Part shown: piece after piece, positions 8,712 to 16,599 of the stretch
How the letters are laid out: every line of letters begins with the position of its first letter
Position numbering within the stretch: position 1 is the first letter of the stretch
Notes under the pieces: model-generated
What the model was told of the DNA's origin: nothing
The model's input: the letters and a program-made list of their open reading frames with translations, nothing else
The model's database searches: none
Source of the DNA: Methanofollis ethanolicus
GTDB lineage: Archaea; Halobacteriota; Methanomicrobia; Methanomicrobiales; Methanofollaceae
DNA length: 64,000 bases
NCBI RefSeq assembly: GCF_001571385.1
Contig: NZ_BCNW01000001.1
Span: forward strand, 496,001 to 560,000
Direction: 5' to 3'
Program-made: the position numbers and the translations under genes

Positions 8712-9587
8712 TCAGCCTTCGACTCTGGCGAGGAACTCCCGCACCGTCGCGAGGTAGGCGACCGTCGCCTCAAGGTGGTGCTCGTGGGACGCCCCGTCGA
8801 AGACGGCGACCTCCGACCCCGGCATCATGCTGTGGTAGTATGCCGTCGTCTCCGGGGTCGCCTCGTCGAACTCCCCGCAGGTGAAGAGGGTGGGGACCCG
8901 GATCTCATGGAGGCGTTCGGCGCGCTCGAAGTCGCCGAGGCTTCCGGTGATGGTGAACTCGCTCGGCCCCCACATCTGGAGGTAGATGTCGGCGTTCAGG
9001 CGCTCGAATGTTTTCATCAGGCAGTCGGGCCAGGGGTCTGTGCGGCAGACATGAAGGCGGTAGTAGGCCGTCATCGCCTCCTGGTAGGCGGGACCGTCGT
9101 AGCTGCCCGCCTCTTCGGCGCGGAGGACCGCCTCCCTGTGGTCGTCGGGGAGGGCCAGGAGATATCTCCGCCCGTCCGCGGCCCAGTGCGATGCCGAGAG
9201 GCAGGGTGCGGAGAGGACGAGGCTTTCCACCCCGTCGGGCCGGTGCGTGAGCATGTATTCGACGGCGAGCATCGTCCCCCAGGACTGGCCGAGGATGTGG
9301 ACGCGGTCGAGGCCGAGGGCCTTCCGCACCGCGGCGAGTTCGTCCACGGCACGTTCCAGCGTCCGGAGGGAGGGGTCGGCCGGGCGGTCGGAGTCGCCGC
9401 AGCCGAGCTGGTCGTAGAAGACAATCGGCCTCCCCCCGAGGGCGGCGAGAGGTTCGAGGTAGTCGGACGTGCAACCAGGGCCGCCGTGGAGGACGAGGAG
9501 AGGGGTGCCGCTCTCCTCCGCGCCGGCGACATGATACACTATCTTTCCGCTGGGAACGTCTGCGAAACCTTCATGGGGGAGATCCAT
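8712..9587 (-). CDS. pip: Proline iminopeptidase-like alpha/beta hydrolase
   Basis: 291 residues from ATG 9587. Oxyanion-hole motif HGGPG (about residues 34-38) and nucleophile elbow GQSWG (Ser about 102) are the signature of S33 proline iminopeptidases; the acid (CGEFDEATPE) and His (ASHEHH) are in the expected late positions. It releases N-terminal proline from peptides in the cytoplasm. The start at 9728 is rejected because its first 47 residues come from AT-rich non-coding DNA. Forms an operon with the FilR1 regulator. Confidence 0.85.
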   Translation of the reverse strand: MDLPHEGFADVPSGKIVYHVAGAEESGTPLLVLHGGPGCTSDYLEPLAALGGRPIVFYDQLGCGDSDRPADPSLRTLERAVDELAAVRKALGLDRVHILGQSWGTMLAVEYMLTHRPDGVESLVLSAPCLSASHWAADGRRYLLALPDDHREAVLRAEEAGSYDGPAYQEAMTAYYRLHVCRTDPWPDCLMKTFERLNADIYLQMWGPSEFTITGSLGDFERAERLHEIRVPTLFTCGEFDEATPETTAYYHSMMPGSEVAVFDGASHEHHLEATVAYLATVREFLARVEG

Positions 9588-9845
9588 ACTTTTTCTCTTG
9601 ACGTTTTCCGGGATGAAGGTGGCGATCTGGTCGTGGGCGAGAATGTTTGTCGTCAAGTTTCTGGAATGATTTGTATTCGACAATAAATGGAATGAACGAA
9701 TATTTTGGAATGTCTTCAATCTCGACAATTTGATTTTTCTATCAAATACACTTTCACAACACGCATGGCTTCAATTAAACATAGAGTAAGTACACAAGGT
9801 CAATAACAGATGCGAACAAACTAGGTGTCATATAGGGTAAGATAG

Positions 9846-10577
9846 ATGTCTACTATAATTTATGAAAGCAAAGGAAGAGCACGTGAGTATTCTGAATTGG
9901 CAGCTAATCTATATCGCGGTTGCGATCATGGCTGTATTTATTGCTACGCACCTCTTGCAACAAGGAAAAGCAGGGAAGTATTTCTTAAACCCGCTGTAAG
10001 AGAAGGGGTTATCAATAAGTTATTTAATGACGCAGAAGAATTAGAAAAAAAGAAGGAAGAGCGATATATTTTACTTTGTTTTACGACAGATCCATATTTA
10101 CATCTTGATGAAAAGTATCAACTTACCCGAAAGGCAATTCAGATCCTACTCAGTCACAATCTAAAAGTGACCATTCTGACAAAGGGAGGACGTCGTTCGG
10201 AAAGGGATTTTGACCTTTTAGAATCTCATCCTCATATGACTAAGTATGGAGCAACACTTGTTTTTACTAACGAAGAGCAAAGAAAAGTTATTGAACCAAA
10301 TGCGGCCCCCACCAGCGAAAGAATTCAAGCTTTAAAAAATGCTCATGATCGAGGAATCTATACATACATCTCCTTAGAACCTGTCTGGGATCCTGAACAG
10401 AGTTTGCAATTGATTGATCTAACTCACGAATTTGTTGATCACTACAAAGTGGGAAAATTAAATTATAATTCCCGACAGCAGGAAATTGACTGGAAGGAAT
10501 TTCGTGAAAATGCCATTAAAAAACTAGAGCATTACAAAAAATCGTATTATATCAAAAATGATTTATTGCAATATTAA
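9846..10577 (+). CDS. Radical SAM protein of the SplB-like group
   Basis: 243 residues. The radical SAM 4Fe-4S motif is CDHGCIYC (C-x3-C-x2-C, about residues 26-33), followed by a partial TIM-barrel pattern (ILLCFTTDPYLHLDE, KVTILTKGG, YISLEPVWD). Length and motifs match the COG1533 (spore photoproduct lyase-like) family rather than a phage Gp37 protein. The gene is markedly AT-rich compared with its surroundings and converges on, and overlaps by 4 nt, a TcmP gene. Radical SAM proteins of this kind are known next to three-Cys-motif partners; the substrate is not known to me. Signs of transfer: composition and codon use. Confidence 0.8.
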   Translation: MSTIIYESKGRAREYSELAANLYRGCDHGCIYCYAPLATRKSREVFLKPAVREGVINKLFNDAEELEKKKEERYILLCFTTDPYLHLDEKYQLTRKAIQILLSHNLKVTILTKGGRRSERDFDLLESHPHMTKYGATLVFTNEEQRKVIEPNAAPTSERIQALKNAHDRGIYTYISLEPVWDPEQSLQLIDLTHEFVDHYKVGKLNYNSRQQEIDWKEFRENAIKKLEHYKKSYYIKNDLLQY

Positions 10578-11731
10578 AACCATTCACTTAGATCTTTTTG
10601 ACCGATTTTATCATTGTTTTTCTTCGTTGTTATTATCTTGGCATCATGATTCCATTGGTATATTTTCCACTGTTCCAATTCTTTTAATCCATGAAGTTTC
10701 ATCATGTAATGTCCAGCATTATTGTCTGTTAAAAATAGCATACAGTATACAATGTTTGTTTGACCCGTACTTTTTATTTCAGCGATAATTGGTGGTTTTT
10801 CATACATGGCAGATAATTTTTGAGCATAAAGATCGAGAATATATTGTCTTGCATTGATTTTCTCACCTCTATTTATCTTCTCTAAATATGGTGGAAGCCA
10901 TTCTGATTCAGAAATACCTATGGCATCTGAAATAATATGGGGATTTTTGGTAATATTTCTTTGAAGGTCTGGGGTCATAAACGTAATAATTAATTCTGGC
11001 TTTCGGACTATATTTTTGCCTTTGGATTTATATTGTCCCCAATTTGTTCCTATCTTCTCAACAACCGACCAAGGTAATTCACTAACAGCATAAGGATCTA
11101 AGATCCAGATATTGGGATATTTAGGGTTTATTTGGCGCAGAGCCCACTCTGCTGCTGGTTCTATTGTTTGAGATGTTATTTCTATTTTATTCCTTATTTT
11201 TCTGAATTTTTCGATATTTGTATTTAGTGCATCATATTGTCTGCGGCACTTTTCAGGGTTCTTGTGATATGAATTTAAGAGTAACTTCCCAGGAAATGAA
11301 TAGTTCTCCAAGCACTGTGCAGCTAATAGCGCTGACCCCGGCCACTGATAGTCTCCGGCATGATATTCCTTTGCATCGTCACAGGTTACCAGTCCGCTTG
11401 CTGCATAGAGATCTATAATGTCAAGTGAAGGTACTCTTTTATTTTGCCTATTTTCTTCACTATCAACATTTTCTGTCCAGATATTTAGGTAACACTCAAT
11501 AAATTTGTGCTTCTGTCTTGTATGATATTTCACTTCTTCACTGGTGAAATCGTTATCATTGTCTTCAATCTCAGAATAATCCATTTTTTGGCCCTCTTTT
11601 GTCAAACCGGATCCTTTTTGTTGGGGATTATCTCTCATATAGGTTATAGGTTTCGATTCGATGTCTATGCCCCTATAATTGTATGTTCCATTAAATTCAT
11701 CTGTAAATAGGGGAGCAATATCTTTTAACAA
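10574..11731 (-). CDS. tcmP: Three-Cys-motif partner protein TcmP
   Basis: 385 residues. The segment HTRQKHKFIECYLNIWTE (about 70-87) followed by IIDLYAASGLVTC resembles the conserved start of the TcmP family (H..KH..I..YL..W, then a methyltransferase-like first strand). WILDPYAVSELPW resembles the following conserved DPF/Y-type motif. TcmP proteins are defined by their adjacency to radical SAM/three-Cys-motif proteins, as here. The family may be a nucleic-acid-modifying or defence component; that is inference. AT-rich like its partner, so the two probably arrived together. Assignment is from memory of the family pattern. Confidence 0.65.
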   Translation of the reverse strand: MLKDIAPLFTDEFNGTYNYRGIDIESKPITYMRDNPQQKGSGLTKEGQKMDYSEIEDNDNDFTSEEVKYHTRQKHKFIECYLNIWTENVDSEENRQNKRVPSLDIIDLYAASGLVTCDDAKEYHAGDYQWPGSALLAAQCLENYSFPGKLLLNSYHKNPEKCRRQYDALNTNIEKFRKIRNKIEITSQTIEPAAEWALRQINPKYPNIWILDPYAVSELPWSVVEKIGTNWGQYKSKGKNIVRKPELIITFMTPDLQRNITKNPHIISDAIGISESEWLPPYLEKINRGEKINARQYILDLYAQKLSAMYEKPPIIAEIKSTGQTNIVYCMLFLTDNNAGHYMMKLHGLKELEQWKIYQWNHDAKIITTKKNNDKIGQKDLSEWF

Positions 11732-12029
11732 ATAATTTCTCTCAATATTTGACTCAGTAGAATTCCTTACCTGAAAGTACTTCTTGGGGTGCTCACTGAA
11801 GAATTCTTATTCTTCCGTGCCTGTACCGGGGGACTACGCCCCCGGACCCCCGTTCTGGATTGGGGATGGACGCAGTCTCCTCTGGCAACACCTTCGGTTC
11901 TCTCTTCTCCTTAGGCTCAGGTATGACTGAAAAGAGTCGAGAAAATATCTGGCTTTCGAGTTAGGTGGGGGTTTAGTCCTCTGGTCTCTCTCTGGGTGAA
12001 GGTGGTGATCCGTGGATCCCCCACCCTCT
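11732..12029. repeat. Intergenic hairpin repeat copy R1
   Basis: The AT-rich island ends near 11790. From AAGTACTTCTTGG (about 11776) the sequence matches the opening of copies at 20236 and 31124. The core hairpin is 11826-11852 (CCGGGGGACTACGCCCCCGG followed by ACCCCCG). The second hairpin of the pair is not recognisable here. No gene is seen. Confidence 0.6.
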
Positions 12030-12425
12030 CTACCCCAGGATCACCTTCACGTACGGCCGCGGCACGAGGACGCAGGCGCAGAAGGCCTCCCTGACGCCGA
12101 CGGCGACGACCACTGCTGTGACCGGGTCCGTCTCCACCGCCGCGGCAAAGCCCGGTTCGATGCTTTCCATGAAGGCGAAAAATCTGCGGAGTTCCATGAA
12201 CGGGCGGTCGGCCTCGGGGACCATCTCGAAGGCCGCGAGGTCGGCCTCGATAGTGGACGTGCGGGCCACCTCCTCGTCGAAGTAGACCCAGACCTCGACG
12301 TCGTGGTCGCGGGCGATCGTGCGGAGGGCGAGGAGGTCGGCCTCCCCTCCTTCCGTGATGCCGAGAGATGCGAAACGCTCTCTCGTGTCCTTCCCCGGCA
12401 GACTCTCGAAAGGTGCGGTTGTCAT
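12030..12425 (-). CDS. Conserved-context hypothetical protein next to phosphomevalonate dehydratase
   Basis: 131 residues from ATG 12425, preceded by GAGGT and only 5 nt after the stop of the aconitase-X gene. Soluble, mixed alpha/beta, acidic, with motifs VEVWVYFDEEVART and ELRRFFAFMES; the C-terminus (AFCACVLVPRPYVKVILG) has paired cysteines. It does not resemble the DUF126 swivelling small subunit of the dehydratase, which would be expected in this position. I do not recognise the family. The long open frame extending upstream to 13427 is only the antisense-like shadow of the next gene. Confidence 0.65.
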   Translation of the reverse strand: MTTAPFESLPGKDTRERFASLGITEGGEADLLALRTIARDHDVEVWVYFDEEVARTSTIEADLAAFEMVPEADRPFMELRRFFAFMESIEPGFAAAVETDPVTAVVVAVGVREAFCACVLVPRPYVKVILG

Positions 12426-12430
12426 AGACC

Positions 12431-13594
12431 TCACATCGTGGCGACGGCCACGCACTCCTCCATCGTCCCGATCCGTGCCACCGCCCCGCACATCGTCGGC
12501 ACATACGCGAGGGCCTTGCCCGAGTTCACCATGATCGCGTCGTACCTGTCCAGGGCCGGGGAGACGACGACGCAGGTGTCTGCATAGACCCGCGCCCCGC
12601 TCTTCTCGATCGCCGCCACGGCGTCGCGGTTCTCCGCGATGACGCCCTGTGCGGCGAAGACGAAGAAGGGCTTTTTCACCTTTTTCCCGGCGAGGAGACC
12701 GGCGAGGGTGTCGAGTTCGGCCGGAGAGAGATGGGGGCACCCGACCGCGATCGCGTCCACCTCGATCGAGGAGAAGACCTCCCGCACCTCGTCCATCCTG
12801 ATCTCGACAGTCTCCGGGACATCGCGCTTGAAGGTCGGCAGGCGGGCCTCGGGGGTGATCCTGTCCACGTGGAAGAGGGCCACCGCGCCGGTCGCCGCCA
12901 TCGCCGCGCCCAGCGCCTTGAGGTGGTCGCGGGGCGGCCTGATCCCGGAGAAGAGAGGGATCCTGTTCCCGACAATCTTCCCGGCCACATAGCCCAGGGC
13001 CCCGTATTCGGCCGCGTCCTTCAGCGCCGCCGGGTCGTCCACCGTGATCCCGATGTTCGGCAGGCGGTTCTTGAAGAGGTGCAGGCCGTAGTACGGCGTC
13101 TTGCCGACGATCGCCGCGGCAAGGGCGCCCGGCCCTCCCTCGCGGTTCGTCCTCGCGCCGATGACCGAGTTCGCATAGACGACGGCCGACGACTCGGCCC
13201 AGGCCAGGTGCTCGCCGTACTGCGTCTGGGAGATGTAATACGGCGTGCAGGTGCACTCGAGTTTGATGCCGAGACGCCCGTAGGCCGCGACCACCGCCTC
13301 CTGCTGCTGTGCGAACACCTCGGGGACCCCCATCTCCTTCCAGCGGTCGCGGGCCATGCCGATCGGGTTCAGGACAGTCGGCACCGCCACATGGGCGTCC
13401 AGGCCCTGCAACCATTCGAGGCCCCACTTCCCGATCGTCTTGTACGACGCCCCCGAGACCTGGGCGCTCGCGATCGGGATGAGTTTCTCGGCGCCGAAGA
13501 CCTTGCCGAGTCCGACGAGGATCTCCAGCATCTGCTGCATCGTCTCGCCGTACTCGCCGTTCTGCATTTTTTCTTCTTCAGGTTCCAGATACAT
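12431..13594 (-). CDS. Phosphomevalonate dehydratase large subunit (aconitase X)
   Basis: 387 residues, normal for the aconitase-X catalytic subunit. Visible features: IPIASAQVSGASYKTIG near the N-terminus, the cysteine-bearing CTCTPYY, the WAESSAVVYANSVIGARTNREG stretch (read in two halves), and GCPHLS plus PTMCG later, which carry Fe-S or substrate contacts in this family. In archaea the large and small subunits dehydrate mevalonate-5-phosphate to trans-anhydromevalonate-5-phosphate in the archaeal mevalonate pathway. Start and UbiD stop share one base (TGATG), so translation is coupled. The small subunit gene is not in this cluster. Confidence 0.85.
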   Translation of the reverse strand: MYLEPEEEKMQNGEYGETMQQMLEILVGLGKVFGAEKLIPIASAQVSGASYKTIGKWGLEWLQGLDAHVAVPTVLNPIGMARDRWKEMGVPEVFAQQQEAVVAAYGRLGIKLECTCTPYYISQTQYGEHLAWAESSAVVYANSVIGARTNREGGPGALAAAIVGKTPYYGLHLFKNRLPNIGITVDDPAALKDAAEYGALGYVAGKIVGNRIPLFSGIRPPRDHLKALGAAMAATGAVALFHVDRITPEARLPTFKRDVPETVEIRMDEVREVFSSIEVDAIAVGCPHLSPAELDTLAGLLAGKKVKKPFFVFAAQGVIAENRDAVAAIEKSGARVYADTCVVVSPALDRYDAIMVNSGKALAYVPTMCGAVARIGTMEECVAVATM

Positions 13595-14844
13595 CAGTCA
13601 TTCCATCCTGCACGCACAAACTTCTCCTCCTCACCCATCACCATCGTGGCGTCGAGGCCGATTTTCACGTTCGTGCCGTCGCCGTCCCGGCAGGGGTCGA
13701 GGGACGAGCCCCGCACCCCGGTAATCACCATCAGGTCGCGGTCGCCCCGCACCCGTGTTGCGATCGCGTACTCCACGTCCTCCATGGAGAAGGGGTCGAT
13801 GTCCTCGTCCACGACGACGACGTGTTTCAGGGAGGTGTGAGCCGCGAAGGCCGCCATGATCGCGTTCTTCCCGTCGCCCTGCGTGTTCTTCCTGACCTGC
13901 ACGACCGCATGGAGGTAGCCGCAGCCGCCTGTCGTGAGCACGACGTTCCTGACCGTCGTCACCCCGGCCACGGCCCGGTAGATCTTCGGCTCGTACGGCA
14001 CGCCCATCAGGAGACGGTGTTCGCTCCCGCCCGGGAGGATGGAGTGGTAGATGGGGTCTTCCTTCGTCCACATGCCGGTGAGTTCCATGACGGGCTGGAC
14101 CCTCTCGAAGTCGTAGGTGCCGGTGATGTCGACGAAAGGCCCTTCCTCGGACTTCTCCGCCCCGATATACCCTTCGAGGACGATCTCGGCCTCGGGGACC
14201 AGGACCCCGTTCGAGCATTCATAGACAGGGAGGTCCCCGCCCATCAGTTCGGCCGCGAAGGCGAGTTCCTTCCCCTCGGGGACGCGGGTGCAGGAGGCGA
14301 AGGTGACCGCCGGGTGGACGCCGAGGGCGATGGCGATCGGCAGTTTCTCGCCCCTCTTCAGCGCCTCGCGGTGGAGGACGTCGGTGTGCCGGCCCTCGAC
14401 GAGGCGTGCGGCCAGGCGGTCCTTGCCTATCACCATCATGCGGTGGATGGAGGCGTTCTCCACGCCATCCAGGCGGGAGAAGACGATCCCCGCGGTGATG
14501 TACGGGCCGCCGTCCTTCGGGAAGAAGGTCATGACCGGGAACGCGGTGAGGTCGGCCGGGCGCATGTCGAGTTTGCCCATCGGCGTCAGCGTGCCGCTGT
14601 ACGACGCCCCGGCCAGTCTCTTCACCAGGTCGGCCTCCGTGCTCCCGAGGGCCGCCGCCAGGGTGCTCCTGTTCGCGGTGAGGTTCATCACCGCCTTCTT
14701 CCCGCCGATGTCGTGGAAGAGGAGGACCCTGTCGGTCGTGCTCGCCATCTGTGCCGCTTCGAAGCGGTCGGAGACCGGTCTTTCGATCTCGTCGACCAGG
14801 CCCCTCTCCCGCATCTCGTCAATGAACTGTCGCATCGTCATCAT
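13594..14844 (-). CDS. UbiD-family decarboxylase, probable anhydromevalonate phosphate decarboxylase
   Basis: 416 residues. The UbiD fold signature is seen in the segments GPYITAGIVFSR, MMVIGKDRLA, IAIALGVHPA and GPFVDITGTYD, and the Glu/Arg-rich prenyl-FMN site. UbiD enzymes use prenylated FMN, made by the UbiX encoded immediately upstream. Neighbouring aconitase X points to anhydromevalonate-5-phosphate decarboxylase, which gives isopentenyl phosphate in the archaeal mevalonate pathway. GGAGCGG precedes the ATG pair at 14844/14841. The gene overlaps ubiX by 26 nt. Confidence 0.85.
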   Translation of the reverse strand: MMTMRQFIDEMRERGLVDEIERPVSDRFEAAQMASTTDRVLLFHDIGGKKAVMNLTANRSTLAAALGSTEADLVKRLAGASYSGTLTPMGKLDMRPADLTAFPVMTFFPKDGGPYITAGIVFSRLDGVENASIHRMMVIGKDRLAARLVEGRHTDVLHREALKRGEKLPIAIALGVHPAVTFASCTRVPEGKELAFAAELMGGDLPVYECSNGVLVPEAEIVLEGYIGAEKSEEGPFVDITGTYDFERVQPVMELTGMWTKEDPIYHSILPGGSEHRLLMGVPYEPKIYRAVAGVTTVRNVVLTTGGCGYLHAVVQVRKNTQGDGKNAIMAAFAAHTSLKHVVVVDEDIDPFSMEDVEYAIATRVRGDRDLMVITGVRGSSLDPCRDGDGTNVKIGLDATMVMGEEEKFVRAGWND

Positions 14845-15388
14845 ATCCGCTCCATCTTTTTCCGATATCGTGCTCCACCCCGAGGTGGTCGAGGATCCGG
14901 GCGACCACCATGTCCACCAGGTCGTCGATCGTCTGCGGCCGCCCGTAGAAGGGCGGGCTTGCGACCATCACCGTCGCCCCGGCCTCGTCCGCGGCGAGCA
15001 TGTTTTTCAGGTGGATGCGCGAGAGGGGCATCTCCCGCAGGACAAGGATGCACCGCCGCCTTTCCTTCAGACAGACGTCTGCGGCCCGTGCGATAAGGGT
15101 GTCGGAGAACCCGGCCGAGACCGAGGCCAGGGTCTTCATCGAGCAGGGGACGACCGCCATCCCGTCGTACCGGAAAGACCCGCTCGCGATCTCCGCGGCC
15201 AGGTTCCTGTTGTCCTCCTCGATCACCGGGAACCCGTCGAGGCTCACGCCTTCGTGGACCGCGATCTCCCGCGCCGTCCCGGAGACGATCAGGTGCACCC
15301 GCGCCTTCCCCGAGAGCACCTCCAGGAGGCGCCTCGCGTAGACGATCCCGCTCGCGCCGGTCACGCCGATAACATATTCCTTCTCCAT
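14819..15388 (-). CDS. ubiX: Flavin prenyltransferase UbiX
   Basis: 189 residues from ATG 15388. The N-terminal VIGVTGASGIVYARRLLE is the FMN-binding signature; MAVVPCSMKTLASVSAGFSDTLI and REMPLSRIHLKNML (read in parts) are the conserved prenyl-phosphate and FMN contacts. It attaches dimethylallyl phosphate to FMN to make the cofactor for the adjacent UbiD decarboxylase. It follows the HD protein by 8 nt, so the operon order is HD protein, ubiX, ubiD, aconitase X, hypothetical. Confidence 0.9.
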   Translation of the reverse strand: MEKEYVIGVTGASGIVYARRLLEVLSGKARVHLIVSGTAREIAVHEGVSLDGFPVIEEDNRNLAAEIASGSFRYDGMAVVPCSMKTLASVSAGFSDTLIARAADVCLKERRRCILVLREMPLSRIHLKNMLAADEAGATVMVASPPFYGRPQTIDDLVDMVVARILDHLGVEHDIGKRWSGYDDDATVH

Positions 15389-15396
15389 CGTCGTCC

Positions 15397-16599
15397 TCAC
15401 ACCGGCAGCCTGTCCTGCTGCGTCGGTTTTTTGATGTGGAGCACCTCGACGGCCGCCGCTTCCACCGTCTCCCTCTGGTCGGGGAGGGTGTAGACGCCGA
15501 GGCGCCACTGTTCCCGCCGCGTCTCGTTCAGGGTCGTCAGGAGGGGGGAGACCTGTTCGAGGCCGACAAGGGCGTTTCTCTCCCGCACCCGCACCTCCAT
15601 CGACATGTCAGTCGGGAAGGGCGGGATGTCGACGAGCACCGTCTCCTCCCTGACGCCTGCCGCCTCCGCGACCTCCCGGGCGATCTGCCTGCTCTCCGCG
15701 AGGGATGTTCTGGCCTGCACGGCGGCGGCGTTCACCTGGCCGCGGCCGACATAGACGGCCCTCTTGTACAGTCTCCTCTCATAGAGTCTTCGGGCGAGGT
15801 CGCGTGCCGTCTCATCGGGAGAGGCGAGGAGACGGGTGAAGAGGGCGGCGTCGTCCATCCGCATCAGCACCCCGACCTCGTCCCCGCTCTCCTCCAGGTG
15901 GGCGAGGAGGGCGAGGTGGAACATGGAGGTGGCGATCCGGGAGACATGGTGGTAGTAGACCACCGGCCGCATCAGGGTCCGTGCGATGAGCAGGGACTCC
16001 GCGGCATTGATCCCCGAGGCGTCGAGAGCGACGCCGTTCTCCGTCCTGACCGTCGCCCTGATCAACCGCCCGGCGTCGACGAGGCCGTACGGCACGCCGG
16101 TGTAGTGGGCGTCGCGGAGGAGGTAGTCCATCCTGTCCACGTCCAGGTCGCCGTGGATCACGCCTGCGTAGCGATGGGTGCCGTTGATCATGGCGGCGAC
16201 CTCGGCCGGGTCGAGGCCGCGGTCTTCAAGGATTCCGGCCGTCTCGCCCTCCCCGAGGAGGTCGCCCGCGTCCTGGTGGCCCTTCCCCATCATCTCGACC
16301 ATGAAGGCCTCGGTGACATGGGAGAAGGGGCCGTGGCCGACGTCGTGGAGGAGGGCCGAGGCGGTGACCAGGTCGCTCTCGGCCGCGTCGAGGCCGAGGT
16401 GACGGCAGACCACGGCCGCAAGGTGCATCGTCCCGAGGGAGTGCTCGAACCTGGTGTGGTTGGCGCCAGGATAGACCAGGTGGGCGAAGCCGAGTTGCCT
16501 GATATGGCGGAGGCGCTGGAGGGCGGGTGAGTCGAGGAGCGCGAGGGCCGTCTCTCCCACCTCGACGTCGCCGTGCACCGGGTCCTTGATGATTTTCAT
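15397..16599 (-). CDS. HD-domain phosphohydrolase
   Basis: 400 residues. N-terminal signature [13 protein letters not shown] and [18 protein letters not shown] (read in halves), then H-T-R-F-E-H-S and [10 protein letters not shown], giving the His and Asp metal ligands of the HD superfamily (SAMHD1-like/dGTPase-like COG1078). Later [17 protein letters not shown] is also typical. Likely a cytoplasmic nucleotide phosphohydrolase; the exact substrate is not clear. First gene of the isoprenoid operon, divergent from cofD with a 49 nt shared promoter region containing two GTTAAA-type elements. Confidence 0.85.

What the first reader, a model, noticed from the sequence alone, without database searches (positions are those of the whole stretch)
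9600..11790. AT-rich island with a radical SAM protein and a TcmP protein overlapping tail to tail
Composition drops sharply from the GC-rich flanks, and only two genes are present, convergent and overlapping by 4 nt. TcmP-family proteins are recurrently found with three-Cys/radical SAM proteins, but their function is, to my knowledge, not established. The tail-to-tail arrangement is unusual for a functional pair, which is normally co-directional. A mobile defence or nucleic-acid-modification module is the hypothesis.
Basis: partly seen in the sequence, partly recalled or inferred. Interest (0 to 1): 0.68.

Follow-up and report, generated by a model that had tools for sequence, protein, structure and literature searches.

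The report
Foreign radical-SAM and methyltransferase gene pair
A methanogen chromosome carries a small foreign two-gene insert, a radical-SAM enzyme of viral ancestry and a partner that looks like an RNA methyltransferase; it is a new variant of a predicted but untested antiviral system found across archaea and bacteria.

Summary
An AT-rich segment (about 9644-11989; pair 35.5% GC, flanks 63-66%) holds two intact genes, tail to tail with a 4-nt stop overlap: a 243-aa radical-SAM protein and a TcmP protein (TIGR04474, 91.9 bits, cut-off 53). Three same-genus genomes have the flanks and lack the insert. Only 4 of 61 relatives carry a TcmP of this kind. The pairing is no accident: TcmP sits beside a radical-SAM gene in 19 of 19 archaeal genomes and 47 of 48 bacterial loci. 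TcmP models as a methyltransferase closest to RlmJ (23S rRNA m6A). The radical-SAM protein models closest to spore photoproduct lyase. TcmP plus its usual three-Cys partner (DUF5131) is already listed as phage-defence candidates PDC-M30/M41. Here the partner is replaced by another radical-SAM lineage, whose nearest relatives lie in viral contigs beside terminase and often DNA-methyltransferase genes. Relatives of the pair adjoin type I restriction operons three times. The tail-to-tail order is a lineage trait (9 of 12 pairs of this lineage; 4 of 46 bacterial pairs). Best reading: a two-enzyme nucleic-acid-modifying antiviral module. Antiviral activity, target and chemistry are untested. Verdict: new variant of a known, uncharacterised kind.

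The parts
9846..10577 (+). Radical-SAM protein, 243 aa, minimal core, spore-photoproduct-lyase-like fold
   Evidence: PF04055 E 7e-13; only sub-cut-off NCBIfam matches; AlphaFold pLDDT 95.7; best PDB fold match SPL 4fhc, TMq 0.75
9921..9944 (+). CxxxCxxC [4Fe-4S] cluster motif (C26, C30, C33)
   Evidence: Invariant in 30 aligned relatives
10574..11584 (-). TcmP, 336 aa from the family-supported ATG; the longest ORF starts at TTG 11731 (385 aa)
   Evidence: TIGR04474 91.9 bits, cut-off 53; start by alignment; AlphaFold pLDDT 81.9, pTM 0.83; best PDB fold matches RlmJ
10574..10577 (.). 4-nt tail-to-tail overlap of the two stop codons (TTAA)
   Evidence: Same 4-nt overlap in G003, G024, G019, G152 and G115
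11393..11413 (-). TcmP motif I-like SAM loop DLYAASG (residues 58-64)
   Evidence: D58, L59, A61, G64 invariant in 11 relatives
11090..11098 (-). TcmP motif IV-like DPY (residues 163-165)
   Evidence: D163, P164 invariant in 11 relatives
9644..11989 (.). Segment absent from three same-genus relatives
   Evidence: Flanks 91-96% identical in G009 and G010, with about 210-250 bp of other sequence in place of 2.35 kb
11796..11863 (.). GC-rich palindromic intergenic repeat, a host-type dispersed element at the edge of the AT-rich segment; probably not part of the module
   Evidence: Tens of matches across the genus

Best explanation
A horizontally acquired two-enzyme antiviral module. TcmP, an RlmJ-like Rossmann methyltransferase, binds a nucleic acid and methylates or activates a base (fold shown by model; target and activity inferred). 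The radical-SAM protein uses a [4Fe-4S]/SAM-derived radical to modify the same nucleotide at an unreactive C-H position (cluster motif shown; substrate inferred). The resulting lesion or hypermodification impairs invading genomes or transcripts, or marks them for neighbouring restriction systems. The pair itself has no recognisable nuclease. Steps shown: foreign insertion, consistent adjacency of the two families, partner exchange, folds, viral kinship of the radical-SAM gene, defence-island neighbours in relatives. Steps inferred: joint substrate, DNA rather than RNA (slightly favoured), and the antiviral outcome.
For: TcmP is next to a radical-SAM gene in 19/19 archaeal genomes found by TcmP searches and in 46/48 bacterial loci by family plus one by motif; the last is at a contig edge. 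The partner varies in kind (DUF5131, SPL-like, two others) while adjacency is kept. Within one radical-SAM clade three TcmP types occur. Type I RM genes adjoin the pair in G476, G512 and G445, and RloB with an AAA ATPase lies near it in G363; rough chance estimate p about 0.001 under an assumed three such operons per genome. PADLOC PDC-M30A/M41A = TcmP, PDC-M30B/M41B = DUF5131. PDC-M30 occurred in 32 of 100 P. aeruginosa strains, 68.8% of them phage-resistant (PMC10855318). A TcmP gene (SMa2243) is listed right after the Hna defence gene SMa2245 among genes raised together in S. meliloti (PMC12445080). Patchy, AT-rich, with empty sites. Folds: RlmJ, SPL.
Against: No experiment on any such pair was found. 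No defence gene was identified next to the window pair itself. The correlation in P. aeruginosa is weak and confounded by the total number of systems. The TcmP SAM loop here is AASG rather than the fuller AGxG of classical TcmP, so catalysis is not assured. The window TcmP has no PADLOC match of its own.
Confidence: 0.5

Rival explanations
1. Self-marking or anti-restriction modification: the pair hypermodifies the host's own or a mobile element's DNA so that nearby or incoming nucleases do not cut it, as viral relatives of the radical-SAM gene may do for viral DNA.
For: The TcmP-paired radical-SAM clade nests among viral lineages. 21 of 56 viral loci have a ParB/DNA-methyltransferase-type gene within four genes, and 13 a large terminase. 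The nearest viral kin have ParB-methyltransferase upstream and/or TerS/TerL downstream. A same-genus element has it beside a C5 methyltransferase. Type I RM neighbours.
Against: Cellular pairs are mostly not in mobile elements with packaging genes. ParB-methyltransferases are common near terminases anyway, and no background rate was measured. Some of the MT matches may be to the ParB part alone.
Confidence: 0.2
2. Host RNA modification (tRNA or rRNA) that changes translation under stress or infection, with TcmP as an RlmJ-type RNA methyltransferase.
For: RlmJ is the top fold match, and RlmJ proteins are the sub-threshold matches of the TcmP profile: 12 of 12 checked.
Against: The RlmJ DPPY motif is not kept (DPY/DPC/DPT here, DPFG in classical TcmP). 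Patchy distribution is unlike housekeeping RNA modification. The radical-SAM fold is nearest to a DNA-repair enzyme.
Confidence: 0.15
3. DNA repair: the radical-SAM protein is a photoproduct-lyase-like repair enzyme and TcmP an accessory.
For: SPL is the best fold match; SplB-like radical-SAM photolyases occur in SOS operons (PMC3765255).
Against: Only the three cluster cysteines are invariant, so the SPL hydrogen-donor cysteine is not a conserved requirement. No repair genes were noticed beside the pairs. SPL is not known to need a methyltransferase.
Confidence: 0.07
4. RiPP or metabolite maturation pair (radical SAM + methyltransferase).
For: SuiB and SkfB are among the fold matches.
Against: The protein is only a minimal 243-aa core, with no room for a SPASM domain. 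Only short frames flank the pair and none is an obvious precursor gene.
Confidence: 0.03
5. Unrelated genes brought together by chance in an AT-rich intergenic insert.
For: Tail-to-tail genes are not co-transcribed.
Against: The two families adjoin in 19/19 archaeal genomes and 47/48 bacterial loci.
Confidence: 0.01

Closest known systems
Phage-defence candidates PDC-M30 and PDC-M41 (PADLOC-DB 2.0; TcmP + DUF5131/Gp37-Gp68 three-Cys protein)
   Same: TcmP-family component next to a minimal radical-SAM protein; patchy; defence-type neighbours in relatives
   Different: DUF5131 is replaced by an SPL-like radical-SAM lineage of viral kinship; TcmP is a divergent type with no PADLOC match of its own; genes convergent with a 4-nt overlap
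RlmJ, 23S rRNA m6A2030 methyltransferase
   Same: Closest solved fold of TcmP; similar N-terminal H..KH and GS-containing motifs; TIGR04474 matches RlmJ below cut-off
   Different: DPPY replaced by DP(Y/C/T); patchy, consistently paired with a radical-SAM protein
Spore photoproduct lyase (SplB)
   Same: Closest solved fold; CxxxCxxC radical-SAM core
   Different: About 100 aa shorter; no invariant fourth cysteine; paired with TcmP or found in viral genomes
Radical SAM mobile pair protein B (TIGR04470), PA0069 and Rv2578c families
   Same: Related SPL-like radical-SAM sequences
   Different: Far below the curated cut-offs (51 of 410, 67 of 360, 54 of 430 bits)
Prokaryotic viperins
   Same: Radical-SAM antiviral precedent; viperin-type folds appear among the fold matches
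   Different: No specific sequence relation; no methyltransferase partner

Membership tests
TcmP (TIGR04474) | Profile score over the curated cut-off | tested here: met
   91.9 bits, cut-off 53
TcmP (TIGR04474) | Partner radical-SAM/three-Cys gene adjacent | tested here: met
   4-nt overlap with a radical-SAM gene
PDC-M30 / PDC-M41 | A component: TcmP-like protein matched by the PADLOC model | tested here: inconclusive
   Window TcmP has no match up to E 10; its relative in L022 matches PDC-M41A at 6e-6
PDC-M30 / PDC-M41 | B component: DUF5131 three-Cys protein | tested here: not met
   Window radical-SAM gives 16.8 bits to PDC-M30B; a true DUF5131 gives over 370 bits
PDC-M30 / PDC-M41 | Antiviral activity | not testable with these tools
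   Also unvalidated for the known systems (PMC10855318)
Radical SAM superfamily | CxxxCxxC cluster motif and core fold | tested here: met
Spore photoproduct lyase | Conserved hydrogen-donor cysteine beyond the cluster motif | tested here: not met
   Only C26, C30, C33 are invariant cysteines in 30 relatives; C78 varies Cys/Ser
RlmJ | Overall methyltransferase fold | tested here: met
   Top seven PDB matches are RlmJ or its DUF519 relative, best E 5.7e-5, TMq 0.45
RlmJ | DPPY catalytic motif | tested here: not met
   DPY/DPC/DPT in this TcmP type
Radical SAM mobile pair (TIGR04470) | Curated cut-off | tested here: not met
   51.4 of 410 bits
Mobile genetic element | Absent from an otherwise conserved site in relatives | tested here: met
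   G009, G010, G011
Mobile genetic element | Own integrase, transposase, or target-site duplication | tested here: not met
   None in the segment; the flanking 17-nt repeat lies in host-conserved sequence on both sides in G010

The most novel reading that the evidence does not exclude
A virus-derived radical-SAM DNA- or RNA-modifying enzyme was captured by archaea and joined to TcmP methyltransferases as a replacement for the three-Cys protein, giving an antiviral system that works by radical hypermodification of nucleic acid, a chemistry not known (to my knowledge) in prokaryotic immunity outside viperins, which act on nucleotides.
Probability: 0.3. Interest if true: 0.82.

Novelty: new variant of a known kind. 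Interest (0 to 1): 0.52.

Why it matters
TcmP and three-Cys proteins are widespread (TcmP over the family cut-off in 43 of 297 and 18 of 299 sampled genomes of two bacterial phyla) yet no function was found in the papers searched. The partner swap suggests that a radical-SAM enzyme as such, rather than DUF5131 in particular, is what TcmP needs. The viral sister lineages suggest a nucleic-acid substrate. Together these turn an open annotation into direct tests: nucleoside mass spectrometry and phage challenge.

Tried and rejected
Target-site duplication: the 17-nt direct repeat 9611-9627/11994-12010 lies in host-conserved sequence on both sides in G010, so it predates the insert. tRNA-associated integration: no tRNA in the window. 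Known RNA families in 9000-12500: none. TcmP of this type in viral contigs: none, and none near viral radical-SAM genes. Plasmid and phage records for this TcmP: none. Sequence relatives with solved structures: none reliable for TcmP; for the radical-SAM profile only a weak match to a radical-SAM domain protein, 8vpo, E 0.008, and sub-significant ones to SPL. hhalign of small TcmP alignments against single RlmJ gave little, whereas fold search and 12 of 12 sub-threshold profile matches agree on RlmJ. Promoter and terminator scans used bacterial consensus and were not relied on.

Full report
OBSERVATION. Between about 9640 and 11795 GC falls to 0.30-0.38 in flanks of 0.60-0.70; the pair is 35.5% GC. 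It holds two intact ORFs, a radical-SAM protein (9846-10577, +) and a TcmP protein (10574-11731, -), whose stop codons overlap by 4 nt. TcmP scores 91.9 bits against TIGR04474 (cut-off 53); the other matches Radical_SAM PF04055. Alignment with relatives puts the TcmP start at the ATG at 11584.

FOREIGN INSERT. The window lies in a methanogen chromosome (G000); Methanoculleus sediminis (G024) is in the same order. Within the genus, G009 and G010 carry both flanks at 91-96% identity, with about 210-250 bp of other sequence in place of 2.35 kb; G011 also lacks the insert. Only 4 of 61 relatives have this TcmP. In same-genus G003 the pair is at a different place from the AcnX region (0.26 Mb and 2.29 Mb). 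The pair is AT-rich against its flanks in all six Methanomicrobiales genomes measured and in some but not all of the other archaea measured. No integrase, tRNA or duplication marks the insertion.

THE PAIRING IS REAL. All 19 archaeal genomes found by TcmP searches have a radical-SAM gene adjacent. Of 48 bacterial TcmP loci, 46 have one by family, one by motif and one lies at a contig edge. Partners are DUF5131 (most), the SPL-like type seen here (12 archaeal pairs, one bacterial), and two other radical-SAM types. Two of the archaeal TcmP genes look broken (see items noticed in passing).

ORIENTATION. Tail-to-tail order is found in 4 of 46 bacterial pairs and 9 of 12 archaeal pairs with the SPL-like partner (Fisher p about 1e-5 without correction for relatedness). 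Six archaeal pairs have exactly 4 nt of overlap, one of them (G115) with a very different TcmP; a bacterial DUF5131 pair (L236) has the same 4 nt. Inheritance explains most of this; why it persists through a partner change is unexplained.

ORIGIN OF THE RADICAL-SAM GENE. 65 viral contigs carry relatives. In an 80-sequence tree the 12 TcmP-paired genes form one clade (81/87) nested in well-supported viral lineages (100/97, 98/86, 97/89). The root is unknown and the clade support is modest, so capture from a virus is the simplest reading, not a proof. The closest viral kin have ParB-DNA methyltransferase upstream and/or terminase genes downstream. Of 56 viral loci, 21 have a ParB/methyltransferase-type gene and 13 a large terminase within four genes; none has TcmP. 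A 37-kb element in same-genus G003 carries a relative beside a C5 methyltransferase.

FOLDS. TcmP (pLDDT 82) matches RlmJ best, E 5.7e-5, TMq 0.45. Sub-threshold matches to the TcmP profile in Pseudomonadota were RlmJ in 12 of 12 cases. Motif I (DLxAxxG) and DP of motif IV are kept; DPPY is not. The radical-SAM protein (pLDDT 96) matches spore photoproduct lyase best, TMq 0.75; only the three cluster cysteines are invariant cysteines.

DEFENCE CONTEXT. Type I restriction-modification operons adjoin the pair in G476, G512 and G445, and an AAA ATPase with RloB lies near it in G363. PADLOC's untested candidates PDC-M30 and PDC-M41 are TcmP + DUF5131; PDC-M30 was found in 32 of 100 P. aeruginosa strains, 68.8% of them phage-resistant (PMC10855318). 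S. meliloti lists a TcmP gene right after the defence gene Hna among genes raised together (PMC12445080). Nothing of this kind was identified beside the window pair itself.

CONCLUSION. The pair is a variant of the PDC-M30/M41 kind, with its three-Cys protein replaced by a radical-SAM lineage of viral kinship. It most likely modifies nucleic acid in antiviral defence; substrate, chemistry and protection are inferred.

Noticed in passing
window 11796-11863: GC-rich palindromic intergenic element with tens of matches in this genome and others of the genus; possibly a REP-like or terminator element.
   Followed up: partly
L024 5239-6935 and L025 (G003 contig 2, 37.5 kb): A plasmid- or virus-like element of a same-genus methanogen carries a second, TcmP-less copy of the radical-SAM gene directly beside a C5 cytosine methyltransferase.
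   Followed up: partly
L022 3928-10208 and window 9846-15508: In Methanoculleus sediminis the pair also lies beside the UbiX-UbiD-AcnX operon, but on the other side of it than in the window; possible insertion hot spot.
   Followed up: partly
L086 5992-7309: In a Desulfovibrio prophage-like locus the radical-SAM gene is convergent with, and overlaps by 29 nt, a 204-aa protein with methyltransferase-like motifs (DIDPYGDP, reminiscent of Trm1) that no Pfam or PHROG family matches.
   Followed up: partly
L181 1-2496 (G480): The radical-SAM domain is in frame with an N-terminal ATPase-like region in one 831-aa ORF; a possible fusion.
   Followed up: no
L037/L079 (G145) and L036/L038 (G194): TcmP is split into two frames beside an intact radical-SAM-type gene, suggesting decay of one partner.
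   Followed up: no
L236 1447-3014: A bacterial TcmP and DUF5131 pair is convergent with exactly the same 4-nt overlap as the window pair.
   Followed up: partly
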